From: Dokdonella sp.
GTDB lineage: Bacteria > Pseudomonadota > Gammaproteobacteria > Xanthomonadales > Rhodanobacteraceae
DNA: 64,000 bases
Assembly: GCA_023228465.1 (NCBI GenBank)
Contig: JALOBC010000014.1
Location: 1 to 64,000, forward strand
Direction of reading: 5' to 3'
Of this stretch, positions 48,599-56,037 are shown piece by piece. The position numbers were made by a program, and so were the translations under genes. The notes under the pieces were generated by a model. The model searched no databases, was not told the DNA's origin, and was given only the letters and a program-made list of their open reading frames with translations. Numbering within the stretch: the first letter of the stretch is position 1; every line of letters starts with the position of its first letter.

Positions 48599-49365
48599 GC
48601 GCCAACCTGATTGCCCTGGGCACCGTCACGCGCCGCGAGGTGGCGCGCATCCTGCGCATCTGGACCCAGACCCTGCTGCCGTCGGCGATCACGATGACGC
48701 TGTACTTCGTCATCTTCGGCACCATGGTCGGCAGTCGCATCGGCGAGATGGCGCCGGGCGTGGGCTACATCGACTACATCGTGCCCGGCCTGATCATGAT
48801 GGCCGTCATCACCAATTGCTACGGCAACATTTCCTCGTCGTTCTTCGGCGCCAAGTTCGGCCACTACGTGGAAGAAATGCTCGCCTCGCCGATGCCAGGC
48901 TGGGTGATCCTTTCCGGTTACGTCGCCGGCGCGGTACTGCGCGGCGTGATGGTGTCGATCATCGTCCTCATCATCTCGCTGTTCTTCACCGACATCCACC
49001 TGCACCATCCGCTGATCACGCTCGTCACGGTGCTGCTCACCGCCGTCGTGTTCTCGCTGGCCGGCTTCGTGAACGCGGTCTTCGCCAGGAAGTTCGACGA
49101 CATCGCGCTGGTGCCAACCTTCGTGCTGGCCCCGCTGACTTACCTGGGTGGCGTGTTCTACTCGGTCAACGCGCTCGGTACGCCCTGGCGCGAGATCAGC
49201 TATGCCAACCCGGTGCTCTACATGGTCAATGCCTTCCGCTACGGCCTGCTCGATCTCACCGATGTCTCGCTGAGCGTCGCCTTTGCCGTGATGGCGGGTT
49301 TGGCCGTGGTGCTGGCTGCGGTCAGCCTGTACATCCTCGAGCGCGGTATCGGCCTGCGGGCGTGA
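48595..49365 (+). CDS. yadH: ABC-2 permease, YadH type
   Basis: The 256-residue permease has six predicted membrane segments and long stretches characteristic of YadH: RIWTQTLLPSAITMTLYFV, YIDYIVPGLIMMAVITN, SSFFGAKFG, KFDDIALVPTFVLAPLTY and YLGGVFYSVN. Length equals the E. coli protein. It forms the transporter with the ATPase encoded just upstream. The bidirectional hairpin at 49435-49463 separates it from the convergent ribosomal-protein genes. Confidence 0.95.
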   Translation: MSANLIALGTVTRREVARILRIWTQTLLPSAITMTLYFVIFGTMVGSRIGEMAPGVGYIDYIVPGLIMMAVITNCYGNISSSFFGAKFGHYVEEMLASPMPGWVILSGYVAGAVLRGVMVSIIVLIISLFFTDIHLHHPLITLVTVLLTAVVFSLAGFVNAVFARKFDDIALVPTFVLAPLTYLGGVFYSVNALGTPWREISYANPVLYMVNAFRYGLLDLTDVSLSVAFAVMAGLAVVLAAVSLYILERGIGLRA

Positions 49366-49434
49366 TGCCCGCGGGCCACGCGCGGCCTGAGCGTCGGCGG
49401 CGCAAGCGCCGGCCCGGATCGCCTGGGCGGACAT

Positions 49435-49463
49435 GAAGAACCCGCCACGTGGGCGGGTTCTTC
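49435..49463. terminator. Bidirectional terminator-like hairpin between yadH and rpmG
   Basis: A 12-bp perfect stem, GAAGAACCCGCC with GGCGGGTTCTTC, and a 5-nt loop lie between convergent genes. The stem ends supply short A/T-rich tracts; there is no long extra T-run. Confidence 0.75.
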
Positions 49464-49526
49464 AAAGGCGCTGGATCCGGTGTCACCCTGCAGCCGCGGA
49501 CGGCGCGGGGTGCCCGCATCCTGCGC

Positions 49527-49691
49527 TTACTTGATCTTGCCTTCCTTGTAGATCACGTGCTTGCGGACGACGGGGTCATACTTCCTTACCTCCATCTTGT
49601 TCGGCGTGTTCTTCTTGTTCTTGTCGGTGGTGTAGAAGTGGCCGGTGCCGGCCGAGGAAATGAGGCGGATCTTGTCGCGCTTGCTTGCCAT
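49527..49691 (-). CDS. rpmG: 50S ribosomal protein L33
   Basis: Minus-strand reading from ATG 49691 gives 54 residues beginning [20 protein letters not shown] and ending VIYKEGKIK, a standard L33 of the zinc-free type (no CxxC pairs). It sits 13 bp downstream of rpmB, the usual rpmBG operon. GAGGAGTAAC precedes the start. It is a structural component near the E site of the 50S subunit. Confidence 0.97.
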
Positions 49692-49704
49692 GTTTCGTTA
49701 CTCC

Positions 49705-49941
49705 TCAGATCTTCTCGCCGCGCTTGCGCAGCTCCGCGACGACGACCTCGATGCCCTTCTTGTCGATCGTGCGCAGTCCGTGGCTGGAAACCCGCAGGCT
49801 GATCCAGCGGTTCTCGCTCGGCACCCAGAAGCGGCGCTCGTGCAGGTTCGGCAGCCAGCGGCGGCGCGTCTTGTTGCGGGCGTGTGAACGGCTGTTGCCG
49901 GATTGAACGGCTTTGCCTGTAACCTGACAGACCTTGGCCAT
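49705..49941 (-). CDS. rpmB: 50S ribosomal protein L28
   Basis: The 78-residue protein begins [15 protein letters not shown] and contains [20 protein letters not shown], diagnostic of L28. GAGG about 7 nt upstream supports ATG 49941. It is the first gene of rpmBG, with a good promoter at 50104-50132. Confidence 0.98.
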
Positions 49942-50103
49942 GTCGAACCTCTCTGATCATGAAGACCACCCTTGGCCAGGATGGCGGCGGCCCAGCGGCG
50001 ACGGTGCGTCGTGCGGTGCTGGAATCCCCGGGCATCCGGCGCGGGCGGACCGCACGACCGGTTCCGCGGGCCAGTAGGCCATGGATGCTTCAGGGAGCCG
50101 CGC

Positions 50104-50132
50104 TTTATAACCGAGTTTCATCGACATGGCAA
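50104..50132 (-). promoter_or_regulatory. Sigma70-type promoter of rpmBG
   Basis: On the minus strand TTGCCA (50132-50127) and TATAAA (50109-50104) are separated by exactly 17 bp; each differs from consensus at one base. Transcription would start near 50097, giving a ~155-nt leader before rpmB. Confidence 0.75.
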
Positions 50133-50197
50133 GCCGCGCGTATCAGCGCCGCGCGCCCCCGCGTGCGCGGGTCGCGCGGCGCGGTCGCTTCAGGTGT

Positions 50198-50890
50198 TCA
50201 ATCGTAATCCCACAGCACGCGCACCTTTTGCAGGCGCACGCTGCTGCCCTCACAGGCGCTGAACGTGGCCCGCACCATGTAGCTGCACCGCGTGCTGTGC
50301 ACCCAGCGGTTCGGACCCACGTGGGTGTTGCCCCACAGCGGGCCGGGCGCATTGGCGACACCGGTGTCCACAACGCCCAGCTGCACGACCGTGCGCAGCG
50401 AAGAGTCGGGGTCGTTGACGCGCTGGCAGATTTCCCACAGGGTCGTCTCCACTCCGGCCGTGGCCGAATCGTCGATCGCCCACACGTCCATCCAGGTGAT
50501 GCGGTGGTCGTTGGGGAACTCGATTGCCGCGTCGGCCGTCCTGACCGGCGAGCCCGGCTGGCATGACACGCTGTATGAGCTGTTGAACGTCGTCAAGGCG
50601 TTCTGGCCACGGAATTGGAAGTCCGGCCCGGCGACCGAGGTCCAGATCGGATCCACCAGCGGGTCGAGTGTCTGCGGGCTCGCCCCGTCGCGGGCGATCC
50701 GGGCGGCGAGCAGCTCGTCGTGATCGAACGTCGGCGCCCGCCACACCTCGTCGGTCACCGGGTTGAATCCCAGCGCGGTGATCTCGGCCGGGTCCATGAT
50801 GCGCGTGTCGCCGGGCAGCGGATCGGCCGGGGCGGTGCCTGCCAGGCCCAGTCCGAACAGGGTGGTCGCGACGGCAAGTCGTAGTTTCAT
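50198..50890 (-). CDS. Secreted four-cysteine protein, family A, downstream copy
   Basis: I do not recognise this 230-residue protein. It has a Sec signal peptide (1-22, ending APA) and an N-terminal motif DPAEITALGFNPVTDEVWRAP. A core follows with Cys110, Cys155, Cys202 and Cys213. Motifs include SCQPGSPVRTADAAIEFP, a Trp/Asp stretch WMDVWAIDDS, TLWEICQ and the closing CSYMVRATFSAC followed by VRLQKVRVLW. The pattern suggests a disulfide-bonded beta-rich periplasmic or extracellular protein. ATG 50890 has GGAGAG 6 nt upstream. It is the last gene of the downstream operon and pairs with the copy at 52520-53203. Confidence 0.85.
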   Translation of the reverse strand: MKLRLAVATTLFGLGLAGTAPADPLPGDTRIMDPAEITALGFNPVTDEVWRAPTFDHDELLAARIARDGASPQTLDPLVDPIWTSVAGPDFQFRGQNALTTFNSSYSVSCQPGSPVRTADAAIEFPNDHRITWMDVWAIDDSATAGVETTLWEICQRVNDPDSSLRTVVQLGVVDTGVANAPGPLWGNTHVGPNRWVHSTRCSYMVRATFSACEGSSVRLQKVRVLWDYD

Positions 50891-50904
50891 TGCGTTCTCT
50901 CCGC

Positions 50905-51495
50905 TCATGGCAGATCGTAATCCACGTTGGTGTTGAACATGCCGCGGAAGATGCGGTCGGGGATGTCTGCCTCGATGAAGACCTTCTGCACTTCGGAGGT
51001 GCCGGTGGTGCAGGGAATCGTGCTGATGTCGAAGCGCGCTTCGGCCCAGTACCTGCAATCCAGGTTTTGGGGCGTGTCGAAGATCGACATGCTGGTGATG
51101 AAGTAGCCATTCGCATTCGGACTGGGGGTTGCCGTAGCCAGTTCGGTGGTGGTCGGATTGACCTCGTCCTGGCTCATGCAGGTCTTCATCAGGCGGGTCG
51201 TCATCGGAGGCGCACCGGCGGTGTTGCGCCCGTACATGTTCACGAAGGCGACCTGGTGGCTGTCGGGCAGGGTGAACGGGAAGCGCACGACGTGCGCGGA
51301 CGCCCGCGTCGTGGAATTCGTGCACCGGTAGCTGCCATTGGCGTGGGTAAAGGTATCGGCTGTCCGCGCCGGCTGCCCGGCCGCGCCGGTGATCTGCCGG
51401 TACTCGCGGTTGTGGAACGTTGGCGGGTCGTTGGCCAGCGCGCTGGAGGCGAGCAGGCAGCCGGCGAGTGCGGTCATGGAAATTGCGTTGCGCAT
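50905..51495 (-). CDS. Secreted four-cysteine protein, family B, downstream copy
   Basis: This 196-residue protein of unknown function has a signal peptide (1-21, ending ALA) and conserved text ITGAAGQPARTADTFTHANG, FPFTLPD, APPM, CRYWAEARFDISTIPC and a C-terminal signature DRIFRGMFNTN. Cysteines are at 58, 106, 147 and 162. ATG 51495 is chosen over 51501 because AGGAG is 8 nt upstream. It sits between family C (14-nt gap) and family A (14-nt gap). The DRIFRGMFNTN tail is identical in its paralogue, implying a constrained functional or interaction surface. Confidence 0.85.
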   Translation of the reverse strand: MRNAISMTALAGCLLASSALANDPPTFHNREYRQITGAAGQPARTADTFTHANGSYRCTNSTTRASAHVVRFPFTLPDSHQVAFVNMYGRNTAGAPPMTTRLMKTCMSQDEVNPTTTELATATPSPNANGYFITSMSIFDTPQNLDCRYWAEARFDISTIPCTTGTSEVQKVFIEADIPDRIFRGMFNTNVDYDLP

Positions 51496-51509
51496 GTTCA
51501 TGCTCCTGC

Positions 51510-52133
51510 TCAGCGTTGGTGCTGCACGCGGATCTTGCGGACGGTCGAGGTACTGCAACTGGTGAACTCGACGTAGGCCCAGTAGGTGCAAAGATGGGCG
51601 TTGGCGACCGGCGATCCGGCCACCGCTGTCGTCACCGTGAAGCTGCCGGCATCGGTCTCACTCTTGATATCGGCGAGATTCGTGTTGACCGGTGCCGAGG
51701 CCGGCCCGAGGTCGGGCAGGCACGATTCGCGCAGGACCGCGCGGATGTCATCCGTGGCGGAAGAATCCTGGCCCCACATGCGGAAGTACGTCATCTTGCG
51801 CCCGTGCGGGATGTCCAGGCGCGCGTAGGCCCAGAGATTGGTTGCCGGTTCCTGGCAGAAGAAGCTGCCGGTGGTCGGGTGCGTGGCGTACGACAACAGG
51901 TTTCCGTTGGAGCGAAAGTCCACGCCCAAGGCATTGGTCCAGGTCACGCCGGGCAACATTTCGGCGGGCAGCAATTCGGCCTCGGTGATGCCGGCATCGG
52001 CATCGAAGGTCCAGGGTGCGGCGTCCGCGGTCATGGATACGACGGCGCCGGGCACCTGTTCATCCAGCGGCAGGGCCGCACCGGCGGTGCCCATGGCAAG
52101 CGCCAGGGCGACGGTCAGGCATGTTCGTTGCAT
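51510..52133 (-). CDS. Secreted four-cysteine protein, family C, downstream copy
   Basis: This 207-residue protein has a signal peptide (about 1-20) and cysteines at 93, 138, 182 and 193. The segments WTNALGVDFRS, WAYARLDIPHGRK, YFRMWGQDSS, CLPD and CTYWAYVEFTSC are conserved with the copy at 53814-54392. ATG 52133 has GGAGAG about 9 nt upstream; an open frame to 52316 lacks conservation. It is the first gene of the downstream operon. No known family or enzymatic motif was recognised. Confidence 0.85.
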   Translation of the reverse strand: MQRTCLTVALALAMGTAGAALPLDEQVPGAVVSMTADAAPWTFDADAGITEAELLPAEMLPGVTWTNALGVDFRSNGNLLSYATHPTTGSFFCQEPATNLWAYARLDIPHGRKMTYFRMWGQDSSATDDIRAVLRESCLPDLGPASAPVNTNLADIKSETDAGSFTVTTAVAGSPVANAHLCTYWAYVEFTSCSTSTVRKIRVQHQR

Positions 52134-52284
52134 GATCCTCAGCTCTCCAGTTCGAACCCAGGCAAGCCGCGTGGCGCGGGGTCCGGTTCGCCACGCGTGG
52201 ATGTAGCAGCGCCATGGGGCGCCGCGACGCACCTTCACCCATGGCGCACGCCGCGCCCGGGCGAATTCCTTCCAACAAGGCTGA

Positions 52285-52292
52285 CAATAGCG
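52285..52292 (-). promoter_or_regulatory. Shared upstream motif of the downstream operon
   Basis: CGCTATTG on the minus strand lies 152 bp before the family C start. The same octamer lies 151 bp before the paralogous start at 54392. TATTGT could be a -10; no clear -35 is visible. Confidence 0.4.
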
Positions 52293-52416
52293 GAATCTCG
52301 CGCACAGACTTGACATCTGCCGTGCCGGCGGCCTGCGCCGCAGCGAAGTCGCAGGCCGGGACGGCGCCCCATGGCTCGCTCACATCCACCGCTCCGCATG
52401 CGATGGCGGACGGTGG

Positions 52417-52445
52417 GCGCCGGCCCCGGCAGCCGGGGCCGGCGC
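52417..52445. terminator. GC-rich 13-bp hairpin after the upstream operon
   Basis: GCGCCGGCCCCGG pairs perfectly with CCGGGGCCGGCGC around CAG, 75 bp past the family A stop. It lacks a T-tract on either strand, so it may be a pause or stability element instead of a classical terminator. Confidence 0.5.
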
Positions 52446-52519
52446 GTGCCCTCGGGCTCTACCGCGTTGCCAGGGCGTCGTGATGAACGCCCCTCACCCG
52501 CAGGGGCCGGCGCCTGAGC

Positions 52520-53203
52520 TCACCGGCCCCACAACACGCGCGCCTTCTGCACGCGTACGTCGGAATTCGCGCAGGCGCTGAAGGTGGCGCGCACGAAATA
52601 GGTGCAGATCGAGCTGCGCACCCAGCGTTCGCCCGGGATGGCCTGCGATGCATAGCCCGCGCCTGGCGCGCTGGCCGTGCCGGTCGTGACGGCGCCCAGC
52701 GAGACGACCGTGCGATAATCGGGGTTCGCCGAAAGCTCACTTTGGCACACCTCCCACAGCGTCACATCGACGCCGGCGCTGGTCGAGTTGTCGACGGTCC
52801 AGGCCTGGAAATGGGTCAACTTGCGATCGCCGGGGAACTGGATCGCCGCATCGGCGGTGCGCACCGGCGAGCCGGGCTTGCAGGACACGCTCATGTCCGG
52901 GCCTGCGTGGAACTGCGCGCCCTGGCCACGGAAATGGAAGTCGGTACCCGAGACGGAAGCCCACCATGGGTCGTCCAGTGCACTGGGCGTTTCCGGCGCC
53001 TCGGTTTTGGCGGCCTGATCGTCGGTGACCTGCTCGACCGGCGGCGCCCGCCAGACCTCATCGTGCAGCGGGTCGAAGCCAAGCTCGAGGATCTCGGCAG
53101 GATCGGTGACGCGGATATCGCCAGGTTGCGGACCGGCGGCGAGGGCGGTGCCTGCCAGCAGCAGGCCCGACAGGGCGCAGGCACGCGCGCGTGATGCGTT
53201 CAT
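52520..53203 (-). CDS. Secreted four-cysteine protein, family A, upstream copy
   Basis: This 227-residue paralogue of the protein at 50198-50890 has a signal peptide (1-22, ending ALA), the same DPAEILELGFDPLHDEVWRAP opening and SCKPGSPVRTADAAIQFP. It also shares TLWEVCQ and CTYFVRATFSAC followed by VRVQKARVLW. Cysteines at 108, 153, 200 and 211 repeat the 45-47-11 spacing. Between residues about 55 and 78 the two copies differ and this one is acidic. ATG 53203 fits the GGGAGAG site better than the tandem ATG 53206. It is the last gene of the upstream operon. Confidence 0.85.
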   Translation of the reverse strand: MNASRARACALSGLLLAGTALAAGPQPGDIRVTDPAEILELGFDPLHDEVWRAPPVEQVTDDQAAKTEAPETPSALDDPWWASVSGTDFHFRGQGAQFHAGPDMSVSCKPGSPVRTADAAIQFPGDRKLTHFQAWTVDNSTSAGVDVTLWEVCQSELSANPDYRTVVSLGAVTTGTASAPGAGYASQAIPGERWVRSSICTYFVRATFSACANSDVRVQKARVLWGR

Positions 53204-53217
53204 CATGCTCTCCCTCT

Positions 53218-53817
53218 TCATGGCGTGGTCGGTGCGTTGGTGTTGAACATGCCGCGGAAGATGCGGTCCCTCAGCGTGTGCTCGAGGCGGATCTTCTGGA
53301 TGTAGCTGATGCCGGTCGTGCACGGGATCGCGCTGATGTCGATACGCGCTTCGACCCAATAGCGGCAGTTGTAGGTGTCCGGCGTATCATGAACGCCGAG
53401 CGGCACCGAGAAATATCCTTCGCCGGGCGGCAGCTGCACGGGCCAGGCGACGAGCTCGGTGGTCACCGGCGGCTCCGTGCTGTGCCAGGCGAGGCAGGTC
53501 TTCAATACCGCCAGCTCCATCGGCGGCGCGTCGCTGGTGTGGCGGGCATGGACCGTGACCCAGTTGAGGTAATTCGTGTCGGGAATGGTGAACGGGTAGC
53601 GCACGACATGTGGCACCGGTCGTGTCGCCGCATTCGTGCATTGATACCCGCCGTTGGAGTGCGTGTACTGGTCATCCGTCTGCGCGGGCTGCCCGGCCGT
53701 GCCGCTGATGCCCCACAGCTCGTACTGATGATCCTTGCGGCTGTCGTTGGCCTGCGCGGCGGTAATGGACAGGCAGGCCGCGACGAGGAGGGGAACACAG
53801 GTCCTGGAGATGTTCAT
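53218..53817 (-). CDS. Secreted four-cysteine protein, family B, upstream copy
   Basis: This 199-residue paralogue of 50905-51495 has a signal peptide (about 1-23, ending AQA) and conserved GTAGQPAQTDDQYTHSNGG, YPFTIPD, CRYWVEARIDISAIPC and DRIFRGMFNTN. Cysteines lie at 60, 108, 151 and 166, again 48 and 15 apart for the outer pairs. The start overlaps the family C stop by ATGA, unlike the 14-nt gap in the other copy. Function unknown. Confidence 0.85.
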   Translation of the reverse strand: MNISRTCVPLLVAACLSITAAQANDSRKDHQYELWGISGTAGQPAQTDDQYTHSNGGYQCTNAATRPVPHVVRYPFTIPDTNYLNWVTVHARHTSDAPPMELAVLKTCLAWHSTEPPVTTELVAWPVQLPPGEGYFSVPLGVHDTPDTYNCRYWVEARIDISAIPCTTGISYIQKIRLEHTLRDRIFRGMFNTNAPTTP

Positions 53818-54392
53818 TCGGTGTGCTCCACGAAGACCTTGCGAACCGACAGGTTGGTGCAACCGGGCATGTAGACGTAGGCCCAGTAGGTGCATTGCCC
53901 ACTGTCGACCTCGACCGGGGGATCGATCGTCGCGTTGACCGTGAAACCGCCGGGGCTGCCGCTGCTGCTCACCGTCGCCAGCGTCGTCTGCACCGGATTG
54001 GCGGCGGCAGCCGTATCGGGCAGGCACACGCGGCGCAGATCGGCGCTCACGTTCTTGGTAGACGAGAAATCCTGGCCCCACAGCCGGAAGTAGCGGATCT
54101 TGCGGAATTTGGGGATGTCCAGGCGCGCATACGCGTACTCGAGGCTCGAGGGCGCCACGCACCAGAACGTGCCAAGGGTCGGGTTGGATGCCAGCGTCTG
54201 GCCGTCGCTGACGCGGCGGAAATCGTAGCCGAGCGCGGTCGTCCAGGCCGTCCCGGCCGGGGGAGCGGCAGGTTCGGTCTCGGCTGCACGTGCGCTGTCC
54301 AGCAGCGGACCGCCGTCGGCCGCGGTTTGCGCCATCGCCGACATTGGCCAGGCGGCCGCCGCGAGGGCCATGATCAGGATCTTTCGTTGCAT
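53814..54392 (-). CDS. Secreted four-cysteine protein, family C, upstream copy
   Basis: This 192-residue paralogue of 51510-52133 has a signal peptide (1-21, ending AMA), a short variable Ala/Pro-rich stretch, then WTTALGYDFRR, YAYARLDIPKFRK, YFRLWGQDFSS, CLPD and CTYWAYVYMPGC followed by VRKVFVEH. Cysteines are at 78, 123, 167 and 178. Three ATG codons are close together; 54392 is chosen because GGAGAG lies 7 nt upstream. It is the first gene of the upstream operon. Confidence 0.85.
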   Translation of the reverse strand: MQRKILIMALAAAAWPMSAMAQTAADGGPLLDSARAAETEPAAPPAGTAWTTALGYDFRRVSDGQTLASNPTLGTFWCVAPSSLEYAYARLDIPKFRKIRYFRLWGQDFSSTKNVSADLRRVCLPDTAAAANPVQTTLATVSSSGSPGGFTVNATIDPPVEVDSGQCTYWAYVYMPGCTNLSVRKVFVEHTE

Positions 54393-54715
54393 CAGCATGC
54401 TCTCCATTGGAAACGCCAAAGCAGATTCGCGCGGGCTGGCGGTTTCCACGCGCGCTTGCACACGTCCCCCGCGGGGTCAGAACATGCGTGCCGACGATCG
54501 CCTGCAAGGGACAGGCCGCGCTCATTGGCGCCTGGCAATACCCAATAGCGCAGTTGAGCGAGAGAACCAGACACGCCGATCGATGCAGGGTCCGGACGCA
54601 CTGGCGCCAGGCGCAATGTCTCCAGGTGACGAACCGCGGCGCGGTCGTCGCCTTTCACCACCAGAGGGGGTCGCCGCGGCATTGCGCAGCGGCAGCAGCA
54701 TGTGCGGCGCCGCGT
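54393..54715. other. Leader region of the upstream duplicated operon
   Basis: No gene is supported in these 323 bases. The region contains CGCTATTG at 54543-54550 and, just downstream of it, GGTATTG, either of which could be a -10. It separates the operon from the oxygenase gene that ends at 54716 on the same strand. Confidence 0.5.
54543..54550 (-). promoter_or_regulatory. Shared upstream motif of the upstream operon
   Basis: CGCTATTG on the minus strand, 151 bp before the family C start, the counterpart of the motif at 52285-52292. Confidence 0.4.
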
Positions 54716-55321
54716 TCAGCCAGCCGAACCAAAGAACATCAGATACACCAGCCGCCCATTGGCCAGCGTATCGCCGAAGCCCTCACCGGCGGTGTGCCAC
54801 AGCCAGGGTCGCAGCAACAGCAGGCGGTTGAAGCGCATCGGTACGCGCAGGGTCAGTTCCCAGGCGCTCTCGTCGTTGCTGTCGCGCTCGATGATGTCGC
54901 GATGCATGTCCTGCATGGAGGCGTAGCCCATGGCATGCAGTTCCTCCGCGTTGAGCGGTCCGCGCTCGGTGCCGGTGCGCCTGTGGCGGAAGAACTCGGT
55001 GCCACCCGCGCAATGTTCGGGCAGGCTGAGATAGAGGATTCCCGACCAGTGCGACTGGTCCACGTGCACCCTGGCACGGCCGCGGTCGGCGGCCAGGGTG
55101 ATGCGGCACTTGGCGTGTGACTGCGGCGGATCGAGCAGGCGCAAGGGCTCGCCGAGGATGCGCGAGACCTGCGGCACGAGGCCGTCGAGCTGCACGCGTT
55201 GCCGCGAATTGCGGCCCGGAAAGGCCCCGTCCTGTGGCGGATATTCGAGCTCGAGCGCCTTCTCGCGCAGGGCCTGCGGGTTGCCGAGGAAGTCGTCGAC
55301 GATGACGATGGAGGTGGGCAT
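54716..55321 (-). CDS. DUF6445-like putative 2-oxoglutarate/Fe(II) oxygenase
   Basis: The 201-residue protein begins SIVIVDDFLGNPQALREKAL, an opening common in DUF6445-like and prolyl-4-hydroxylase-type proteins. It carries an HxD iron motif in RVHVDQSHWSGILYLS, a later histidine in WLWHTAGEGFGD, and an arginine in NGRLVYLMFFG that could bind 2-oxoglutarate. The substrate is unknown. Its ATG shares one base with the stop of the glycosyltransferase gene upstream (TGATG), so the two are coupled. It ends before the leader of the duplicated operon. Confidence 0.75.
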   Translation of the reverse strand: MPTSIVIVDDFLGNPQALREKALELEYPPQDGAFPGRNSRQRVQLDGLVPQVSRILGEPLRLLDPPQSHAKCRITLAADRGRARVHVDQSHWSGILYLSLPEHCAGGTEFFRHRRTGTERGPLNAEELHAMGYASMQDMHRDIIERDSNDESAWELTLRVPMRFNRLLLLRPWLWHTAGEGFGDTLANGRLVYLMFFGSAG

Positions 55322-56037
55322 CAGAGTTCTTCGGTGGTGGTCCGGCGGGCGCGGCGGATCAGCCAGGCAACGCCGCGCAGGTCGGCGATGCCGACCAGCG
55401 CGCGACCCAGGTTGTTGTACTTCGATTGGCCGGTGGTGCGCGGGCGATGGTTCACCGGCACCGACACCACCTGCCAGCCGGCGCGTTGCATCAGCGCCGG
55501 AAGGTAGCGATGCATGTGGTCGAACCAGGGCAGCTCGAGGAACGCCTCGCGCTCGAACAGCTTGAGACCGCAGCCGGTATCGGGCGTGGCATCGTGCAAG
55601 ATGCGTGCGCGAATGGCGTTGGCCCAGCGCGAGGCCCAGCGCTTGCTGCCAGAATCGCGCCGCGCCACCCGCCAGCCGGCAAACAGCTTGATGGTGGCCG
55701 GCGACGCATCGCGCAAGGCGAGCAGTTTCGGAATGTCGGCCGGGTCGTTCTGTCCGTCGCCATCGAGTGTGGCGATCCACGCCGCGCGCGCCGCCTTGAC
55801 GCCATTGCGGATCGCCGTGCTCTGGCCACTCTGCGCATGGTGGCGGATCACGCGCAATTCGGGAAACGTGGCCTTGGCCTGCTGCAGCATCGCCAGCGTG
55901 TCATCGCGGCTGGCGTCATCCACGTACACGACCTCGAAGCCGACGCGCCCGCGCAGCGCCGCGGCGATCTCGCCCAGCAGTGGCAGGATGTTGTCCCGCT
56001 CGTTGAACACGGGCACGACGACGGACAGTTCGGGCAT
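55321..56037 (-). CDS. Family 2 glycosyltransferase (polyprenol-phosphate mannose synthase-like)
   Basis: The 238-residue protein has the GT-A start LSVVVPVFNERDNI, VVYVDDASRDDT, the metal-binding ATLDGDGQNDP and the closing HRPRTTGQSKYNN typical of DPM1/ArnC-type transferases, followed by a short C-terminal membrane-proximal helix instead of two full membrane segments. It probably moves a sugar from a nucleotide to polyprenol phosphate for envelope glycans. It is coupled to the following oxygenase gene. Confidence 0.9.
   Translation of the reverse strand: MPELSVVVPVFNERDNILPLLGEIAAALRGRVGFEVVYVDDASRDDTLAMLQQAKATFPELRVIRHHAQSGQSTAIRNGVKAARAAWIATLDGDGQNDPADIPKLLALRDASPATIKLFAGWRVARRDSGSKRWASRWANAIRARILHDATPDTGCGLKLFEREAFLELPWFDHMHRYLPALMQRAGWQVVSVPVNHRPRTTGQSKYNNLGRALVGIADLRGVAWLIRRARRTTTEEL

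What the first reader, a model, noticed from the sequence alone, without database searches (positions are those of the whole stretch)
50198..54392. Tandem-duplicated operon of six unknown secreted cysteine proteins
Seen: two successive three-gene sets on one strand, in the same order C-B-A, with every gene having a signal peptide and a clear paralogue in the other set. Family-specific signatures are conserved between copies (DRIFRGMFNTN in B, GSPVRTADAAI in A, YARLDIP and CTYWAYV in C). I recognise none of the three families. Keeping all three genes in both copies implies the products work together, for example as a three-subunit extracellular or periplasmic assembly with two alternative versions. 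That role is inference.
Basis: partly seen in the sequence, partly recalled or inferred. Interest (0 to 1): 0.88.

Follow-up and report, generated by a model that had tools for sequence, protein, structure and literature searches.

The report
Secreted paralogous protein triads, one tagged
This bacterium carries operons that each encode three related, disulfide-bonded, secreted beta-sandwich proteins, only one of which bears a short tail that looks like an undescribed protein-sorting tag, so the three probably travel and work together as one surface or extracellular binding complex.

Summary
In detail: two C-B-A sets of signal-peptide proteins lie at 50198-54398, minus strand. Pfam and NCBIfam gave no match.

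The genome holds four such sets. All 19 complete sets found, in 8 genomes, keep the order C-B-A; two further genomes showed C-B with no A in the stretch held. AlphaFold predicts a confident beta jelly-roll core. The same domain tips seven long fibre-like ORFs in the order. Cysteine co-loss implies disulfides 93-193 and 138-182.

Only B ends in [IL]Fxxx[FM] (B 23 of 23, A 0 of 20, C 0 of 22). That tail resembles IFx[ND]GF[DE], found 25 times in this genome against 0 for the control, mostly near C-termini, frequent in many genomes of the order and near background outside it.

Best reading: a secreted hetero-oligomeric ligand-binding complex, perhaps a heterotrimer, sorted through B's tag. Oligomer, ligand and tag function are inferred, not shown.

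The parts
53814..54398 (-). C1: secreted 4-Cys jelly-roll protein, 194 aa, set 1
   Evidence: ORF; aligned; superfamily match E 3.1e-76
53218..53817 (-). B1: secreted 4-Cys jelly-roll protein, 199 aa, with C-terminal tag-like tail IFRGMF; overlaps C1 by 4 bp
   Evidence: ORF; aligned; tail count
52520..53206 (-). A1: secreted 4-Cys jelly-roll protein, 228 aa
   Evidence: ORF; aligned
52417..52445 (.). GC-rich inverted repeat between the two sets (RNA hairpin, MFE -39 kcal/mol for the 61-nt stretch 52400-52460, z -2.6); possible transcript end, not listed by the terminator scan (no T run)
51510..52133 (-). C2: secreted 4-Cys jelly-roll protein, 207 aa, set 2; AlphaFold model mean pLDDT 76, core blocks from residue 61 on 78-97
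   Evidence: ORF
50905..51495 (-). B2: secreted 4-Cys jelly-roll protein, 196 aa (an ATG at 51501 is also possible), C-terminal tail IFRGMF; AlphaFold mean pLDDT 82
   Evidence: ORF
50198..50890 (-). A2: secreted 4-Cys jelly-roll protein, 230 aa, with N-terminal DPAEIxxLGFxP segment
   Evidence: ORF
50905..50965 (-). tail of B2 (about the last 19 residues, DRIFRGMFNTN...), outside the predicted domain core; pLDDT about 52-53
53218..53278 (-). tail of B1 (DRIFRGMFNTN...)

Best explanation
Each C-B-A operon encodes one unit: three paralogous Sec-exported proteins, each a beta jelly-roll sandwich held by two disulfides, that fold and associate in the periplasm and act as one secreted or surface-displayed ligand-binding complex, most simply a heterotrimer derived from a homotrimeric fibre-tip domain (two-gene versions would be mixed trimers). 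Only B carries a short C-terminal signal, a relaxed form of a lineage-specific IFxxGFE tag that I propose is a protein-sorting or secretion signal; A and C would reach the same destination by riding with B. Several divergent sets per genome would give several binding specificities. Shown here: common ancestry of A, B and C; conserved order; joint descent of the sets; predicted fold; cysteine pairing by co-loss; restriction of the tail to B; genome-wide abundance and C-terminal bias of the IFxxGFE motif. Inferred: oligomerisation, stoichiometry, ligand (glycan most likely), the tag's function, and co-export.
For: Paralogy: six window proteins share four Cys; profile comparisons 99.6/99.9/99.8%, reversed and shuffled controls far lower. 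One unit: 19 of 19 complete sets in order C-B-A in 8 genomes; A/B/C distance matrices correlate 0.89-0.95. Fold: confident jelly-roll cores; Foldseek neighbours are carbohydrate-binding modules, Eph ligand-binding domains and, for C2, TNF/CD40L/BAFF/FasL; viral neighbours of C2 include collagen-repeat, C1q and tail-fibre entries. Fibre link: the same domain lies at the C-terminus of seven long ORFs with an N-terminal conserved domain and a repetitive stalk; profile match 98.8% C, 98.0% A, 95.3% B (controls). Disulfides: of 65 triad-type proteins Cys93 and Cys193 are both present in 57, both absent in 8, never one alone; Cys138 and Cys182 are present in 65. Tag: B 23 of 23, A 0 of 20, C 0 of 22; in the second branch exactly one member, always the second gene, in 14 of 14 operons. 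Motif in the genome: 25 vs 0 control, 17 of 25 within 40 aa of the stop.
Against: No complex could be predicted or measured. Foldseek similarity is weak and the best TM-scores are to monomer-type carbohydrate-binding modules (B2: CBM86 0.64; C2: 0.55-0.60), higher than to TNF-type trimers (C2: 0.35-0.44; none among B2's top 50), which does not favour a TNF-like trimer. G163 and G153 show C-B without A, and 11 of 14 second-branch operons are pairs, so a fixed three-part rule fails across the superfamily. The fibre relatives were not shown to be trimers: a PDB search with one gave nothing. B tails of this branch rarely have the full IFxxGFE form (only LFRHGF, IFRDGF and IFRNGF keep the GF). G150, which has a B with IFHDRF, has only 2 genome matches to the strict motif. 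No machinery for the tag was identified.
Confidence: 0.4

Rival explanations
1. Independent secreted carbohydrate-binding (lectin-like) proteins: A, B and C are monomeric CBM-like modules made from one operon, each binding its own glycan, without forming a complex.
For: Best TM-scores are to CBMs (B2 to CBM86 TMt 0.64, also CBM29, CBM6, CBM35, CBM22, CBM27; C2 to 4d3l 0.60 and CBM86 0.55-0.57).
Against: Strict retention of all three in order (19 of 19 complete sets), joint descent, and only one member per operon bearing the tail are harder to explain for independent proteins.
Confidence: 0.3
2. Subunits or tips of a larger surface fibre or pilus encoded elsewhere: the triad is a detached version of the fibre-tip domain that docks on a separate stalk protein.
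For: Same domain at the C-terminus of seven long fibre-like ORFs. B's tail lies outside the domain core and could be the docking peptide.
Against: No stalk gene recurs beside the sets: apart from orthologous loci the only shared neighbours were rlmE-ftsH-folP in some. No tip-domain fibre was among the own-genome matches.
Confidence: 0.15
3. B's tail is only a family-specific C-terminal extension and its likeness to IFxxGFE is coincidental; the tail has a structural role inside the complex.
For: Most B tails in this branch keep IF[RK]xxF but not GFE; the tail is conserved over longer stretches such as DRIFRGMFNTN.
Against: G384's B ends DPDVIFRNGFAP and G058_C13's B has IFRDGF; second-branch partners carry full motifs in the same gene position (14 of 14 operons).
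Confidence: 0.25

Closest known systems
C-terminal TNF/C1q-like tips of Bdellovibrio mosaic adhesive trimer (MAT) fibres, e.g. Bd2439 and Bd2734 (PMC10769870; passages and section 10 seen)
   Same: Secreted jelly-roll ligand-binding domain; here relatives of the triad domain sit at the C-terminus of long ORFs with signal peptide, conserved N-terminal domain and repetitive stalk. Bd2734 tip (8okw) appears among Foldseek hits of C2.
   Different: Triad proteins have no stalk or MAT N-terminal domain, come as three different paralogues with two disulfides each, and the Foldseek match to 8okw is weak (TMt 0.32). No sequence match to a MAT protein was shown.
C1q A/B/C chains (recalled analogy)
   Same: Three paralogous jelly-roll chains encoded together that would form one heterotrimeric head.
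   Different: No collagen stalk, no C1q/TNF sequence match in Pfam; trimer not shown.
Carbohydrate-binding modules of the beta-sandwich type (CBM86, CBM29, CBM6/35)
   Same: Best structural neighbours of B2 and C2.
   Different: Those in the list are modules of enzymes; here stand-alone secreted proteins in obligate sets. No sequence match.
C-terminal sorting signals such as GlyGly-CTERM/rhombosortase (PMC6219818, PMC3237569; search listings and starts of abstracts seen)
   Same: Short C-terminal element shared by many otherwise unrelated secreted-type proteins of one genome; in L123 it directly follows an NCBIfam 'choice-of-anchor Q' domain.
   Different: IFxxGFE has no hydrophobic helix or basic tail, often ends the protein exactly, and sometimes sits inside a protein or just after a signal peptide. 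No processing enzyme identified.

Membership tests
TNF/C1q-like superfamily | jelly-roll beta-sandwich fold | tested here: inconclusive
   Predicted jelly-roll-like beta sandwich; TNF members among C2's Foldseek top 50 with TMt 0.35-0.44, none in B2's top 50.
TNF/C1q-like superfamily | match to a TNF or C1q sequence profile | tested here: not met
   0 Pfam families for all six proteins at E up to 10.
TNF/C1q-like superfamily | trimeric assembly | not testable with these tools
   No complex prediction available; homology to fibre-tip domains is only indirect.
MAT fibres (Bdellovibrio) | beta-rich domain of about 130 aa directly after the signal peptide (PMC10769870 section 10) | tested here: not met
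   Triad proteins consist of signal peptide, short variable segment and one jelly-roll domain. The fibre relatives have a conserved N-terminal domain after the signal peptide, but its identity with the MAT domain was not tested.
MAT fibres (Bdellovibrio) | fibre stalk and C-terminal tip or S74 chaperone | tested here: not met
   No stalk in A, B or C. Seven related ORFs carry the domain as a C-terminal tip after a repetitive stalk.
Carbohydrate-binding modules | profile match to a CBM family | tested here: not met
   No Pfam or NCBIfam match.
Carbohydrate-binding modules | carbohydrate binding | not testable with these tools
   No assay; only fold similarity.
GlyGly-CTERM type C-terminal sorting signal (B tail) | Gly/Ser motif, hydrophobic region and positive charges (abstract of PMC6219818) | tested here: not met
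   B tails and IFxxGFE tails have no hydrophobic helix.
IFxxGFE tag class described here | I/L-F-x-x-x-F element near the C-terminus, one member per operon | tested here: met
   B 23 of 23, A 0 of 20, C 0 of 22; 14 of 14 second-branch operons, second gene each time. The strict GF[DE] form is met by few triad B proteins.

The most novel reading that the evidence does not exclude
A previously undescribed protein-sorting tag, IFx[ND]GF[DE], serves many secreted proteins of the order Lysobacterales (Xanthomonadales), and the triads are its most elaborate cargo: a heterotrimer of paralogous jelly-roll subunits in which one subunit alone carries the tag and takes the whole assembled, disulfide-bonded complex to the cell surface, with several divergent triads per genome giving several binding specificities.
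Probability: 0.3. Interest if true: 0.82.

Novelty: new variant of a known kind. Interest (0 to 1): 0.64.

Why it matters
If the reading holds, it adds a protein superfamily that had no Pfam or NCBIfam match and a compact system in which three paralogues appear to act as one unit, a bacterial counterpart of heterotrimeric C1q-type heads. The link to a tag used by many secreted proteins of one bacterial order makes a large set of 'hypothetical' proteins testable at once: where IFxxGFE takes a protein, and which machine reads it. The searches for the tag in print (six spellings; 18 papers held one, the five listed are unrelated to bacterial protein sorting) and for the organism with C1q found nothing relevant.

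Tried and rejected
Phage or plasmid origin: A2 against phage records and C2 against plasmid records, no match (only those two proteins, one collection each); A-family alignment against viral contigs, 49 pattern matches but no relative. RNA elements: none at Rfam gathering scores in 49000-56000, no tRNA in the window. Beta-prism or cytolysin relation: four weak PDB sequence hits, E 0.25-1, not pursued. PHROGs: two unnamed weak hits (E 0.039 and 0.16, one member each), not pursued. Defence link: not searched (padloc not used). A fixed genomic neighbourhood: rejected; apart from orthologous loci the shared neighbours were rlmE-ftsH-folP for the C34-type sets. A strict three-gene rule for the whole superfamily: rejected (pairs). 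Rhombosortase-type anchoring of B: rejected on sequence (no hydrophobic helix). Sigma-70 promoters: none found by the consensus scan. Wider spread: C-type profile matched 1 of 369 genomes of the class, this one; tip profile matched 2 of 274, this one and G485. These searches score a limited number of candidates per genome (7-8), so counts are lower bounds.
Full report
What is there. The window (contig C83 of a 3.42-Mb, 99-contig genome) holds two three-gene sets on the minus strand, order C-B-A twice. C1 and B1 overlap by 4 bp, the other gaps inside the sets are 11-14 bp, and 386 bp with a strong GC hairpin separate the sets. A genome of the same genus in the search tool (G005) holds a triad identical to that of a record titled Dokdonella sp., so the window is probably from Dokdonella or a close neighbour (inference). 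Next to the sets lie, as I recognise them by eye, a 2-oxoglutarate-type oxygenase gene upstream and ribosomal protein genes rpmB and rpmG downstream.

One superfamily, not three. The six proteins align with four shared cysteines. Family alignments of 18 members each match each other with hhalign probabilities 99.6% (A-B), 99.9% (A-C) and 99.8% (B-C); reversed profiles reach at most 16.3% and the best of 20 column shuffles per pair scores at most 18.8 against 55-240 for the real pairs. Pfam, NCBIfam and PDB sequence searches gave no significant match.

Repertoire and conservation. The genome has four sets: two here, one on C37, one on C34. Among 61 relatives, 8 had matches, one of them (G013) only to the second branch described below. 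Reading the loci gave 18 complete C-B-A sets in seven genomes; the B of one (G058 C13) was below the first threshold and found by reading the DNA. A 19th, in G384, came from 398 genomes of the order, of which 27 had any match. The order C-B-A held in 19 of 19. Incomplete ones: G150 shows B-A at a contig end, G149 shows C and B pieces at contig ends, and G163 and G153 show C-B with no A in the stretch held. Distances among A, B and C across the 18 sets correlate at 0.914, 0.885 and 0.946; shuffling sets within genomes reached this in 1, 1 and 0 of 5000 trials, so sets descend as units. The tandem pair is not young: set 2 is closer to the G004 and G005 triads (C 47/46%, B 51/49%, A 59/61%) than to set 1 (45, 47, 52%), and a coding stretch beside the G004 triad matches the window stretch downstream of set 2 (70% over 94 aa), so G004 has a single set at what looks like the same site. 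Nine orthologue pairs gave dN/dS 0.22-0.52: real but fast-evolving genes.

Fold and disulfides. AlphaFold with 18 sequences gave confident cores for C2 (mean pLDDT 76; most 10-residue blocks from residue 61 on are 85-97) and B2 (mean 82). Foldseek finds generic jelly-roll sandwiches: for B2 carbohydrate-binding modules (CBM86, TMt 0.64) and Eph ligand-binding domains; for C2 a mixture including TNF-type proteins (TMt 0.35-0.44), the Bdellovibrio Bd2734 tip (0.32) and CBMs (up to 0.60). Viral models similar to C2 include collagen-repeat, C1q and tail-fibre entries. In an alignment of 90 sequences, the 65 triad-type proteins keep Cys138 and Cys182 in 65; Cys93 and Cys193 are both present in 57 and both absent in 8, never one alone. 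The 18 second-branch proteins have Cys93 with a cysteine at the column of residue 199 instead. Hence disulfides 93-193 and 138-182 (C2 numbering, inference from co-loss).

Wider superfamily. Two more branches share the domain. Second branch: secreted proteins in pairs or triples (14 operons examined: 11 pairs, 3 triples); profile match to the C family 98.2%. Third: seven long ORFs in which the domain is the C-terminal tip after a conserved N-terminal domain and a repetitive stalk; profile match 98.8% with C, 98.0% with A, 95.3% with B. This resembles the architecture of Bdellovibrio MAT fibres, whose tips include TNF-like lectin domains (PMC10769870: passages and section 10 read), but no sequence link to MAT proteins was shown (one such ORF, no PDB match). 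A trimeric fibre tip is the main reason for proposing a heterotrimer; the better TM-scores to monomer-type CBMs argue for caution.

The tail and the tag. B, and only B, ends with [IL]Fxxx[FM]: 23 of 23, against 0 of 20 A and 0 of 22 C; elsewhere in the proteins the pattern occurs once in A and once in B. In the second branch exactly one member per operon, always the second gene, carries a fuller form such as IFKNGFD, in 14 of 14 operons: at the C-terminus in 10, and in 4 inserted 23-26 residues from the end, before the last conserved strand. The DNA pattern for IFx[ND]GF[DE] occurs 25 times in this genome, 0 times for the backward control. Of the 25, 15 end within 15 residues after the motif and 17 within 40; the others sit inside long ORFs, once just after a signal peptide. 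Two further genomes: G139, 30 of its 66 sites examined, 28 within 15 residues after removing two duplicates from the script's 29 of 32; G038, 30 of 40 sites examined, 22 within 15. Ten of the 25 proteins were scanned: they include two subtilases, an M28 peptidase, a sulfatase and a DUF1501 protein; in L123 the motif follows an NCBIfam 'choice-of-anchor Q' domain, a name that, as I recall, marks domains met with different surface-anchoring signals in different bacteria. No NCBIfam match covered the tail in these ten. Across 151 genomes of the order 86 have the motif and, by my hand count, 57 have five or more, up to 80; controls are 0-1 per genome. Outside the order no genome exceeds 3 (274 searched, three of them of the order; controls 0-2). 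This is the pattern of a lineage-specific sorting tag. A caution: G150, with a B ending IFHDRF, has only 2 strict matches; G002, G004, G005 and G384 were not in the draw.

Mechanism proposed. Sec export by signal peptide; disulfide formation and folding in the periplasm; association of C, B and A; delivery of the complex outwards through B's tag; ligand, probably glycan, binding by the jelly-roll heads; several diverged sets for several ligands. The tag being confined to one subunit is the argument for travel as a complex. I put 0.4 on this account as a whole, more on the parts that are shown.

Genomic setting. No gene other than the triad recurs at non-orthologous sites, save that the C34-type sets lie beside rlmE-ftsH(-folP): in Dokdonella-type genomes (L016, L043) between ftsH and folP on the opposite strand, in G038 and G049 upstream of rlmE on the same strand (gene names from the protein sequences by eye). 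The triad profile was not found outside the order in 369 genomes drawn from the class.

Noticed in passing
whole genome G000; examples L111-L135: IFx[ND]GF[DE] is a lineage-wide, mostly C-terminal motif of secreted-type proteins: 25 copies here, up to 80 per genome in the order, near background outside it; candidate new protein-sorting tag.
   Followed up: partly
L129 and L223: The same motif sits near the N-terminus instead, in L129 just after a predicted signal peptide and before a sulfatase domain, so it may be position-independent.
   Followed up: no
L176 (G139); G126 C3, C33, C44, C55: Some sites carry two IFxxGFE motifs 27-36 nt apart in tandem.
   Followed up: no
L099, L102-L107: Seven long fibre-like ORFs with a conserved N-terminal domain, repetitive stalk and the triad domain as C-terminal tip; possible relatives of MAT-type adhesive fibres.
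   Followed up: partly
L016 and L043 versus L048 and L050: Triads lie beside rlmE-ftsH(-folP) in two different families, but on different sides and in different orientation.
   Followed up: partly
L149-L152 (C85 pair of this genome and relatives in G004, G012, G005): In these second-branch pairs the tag is inserted 23-26 residues from the end, before the last conserved strand, instead of at the terminus.
   Followed up: partly
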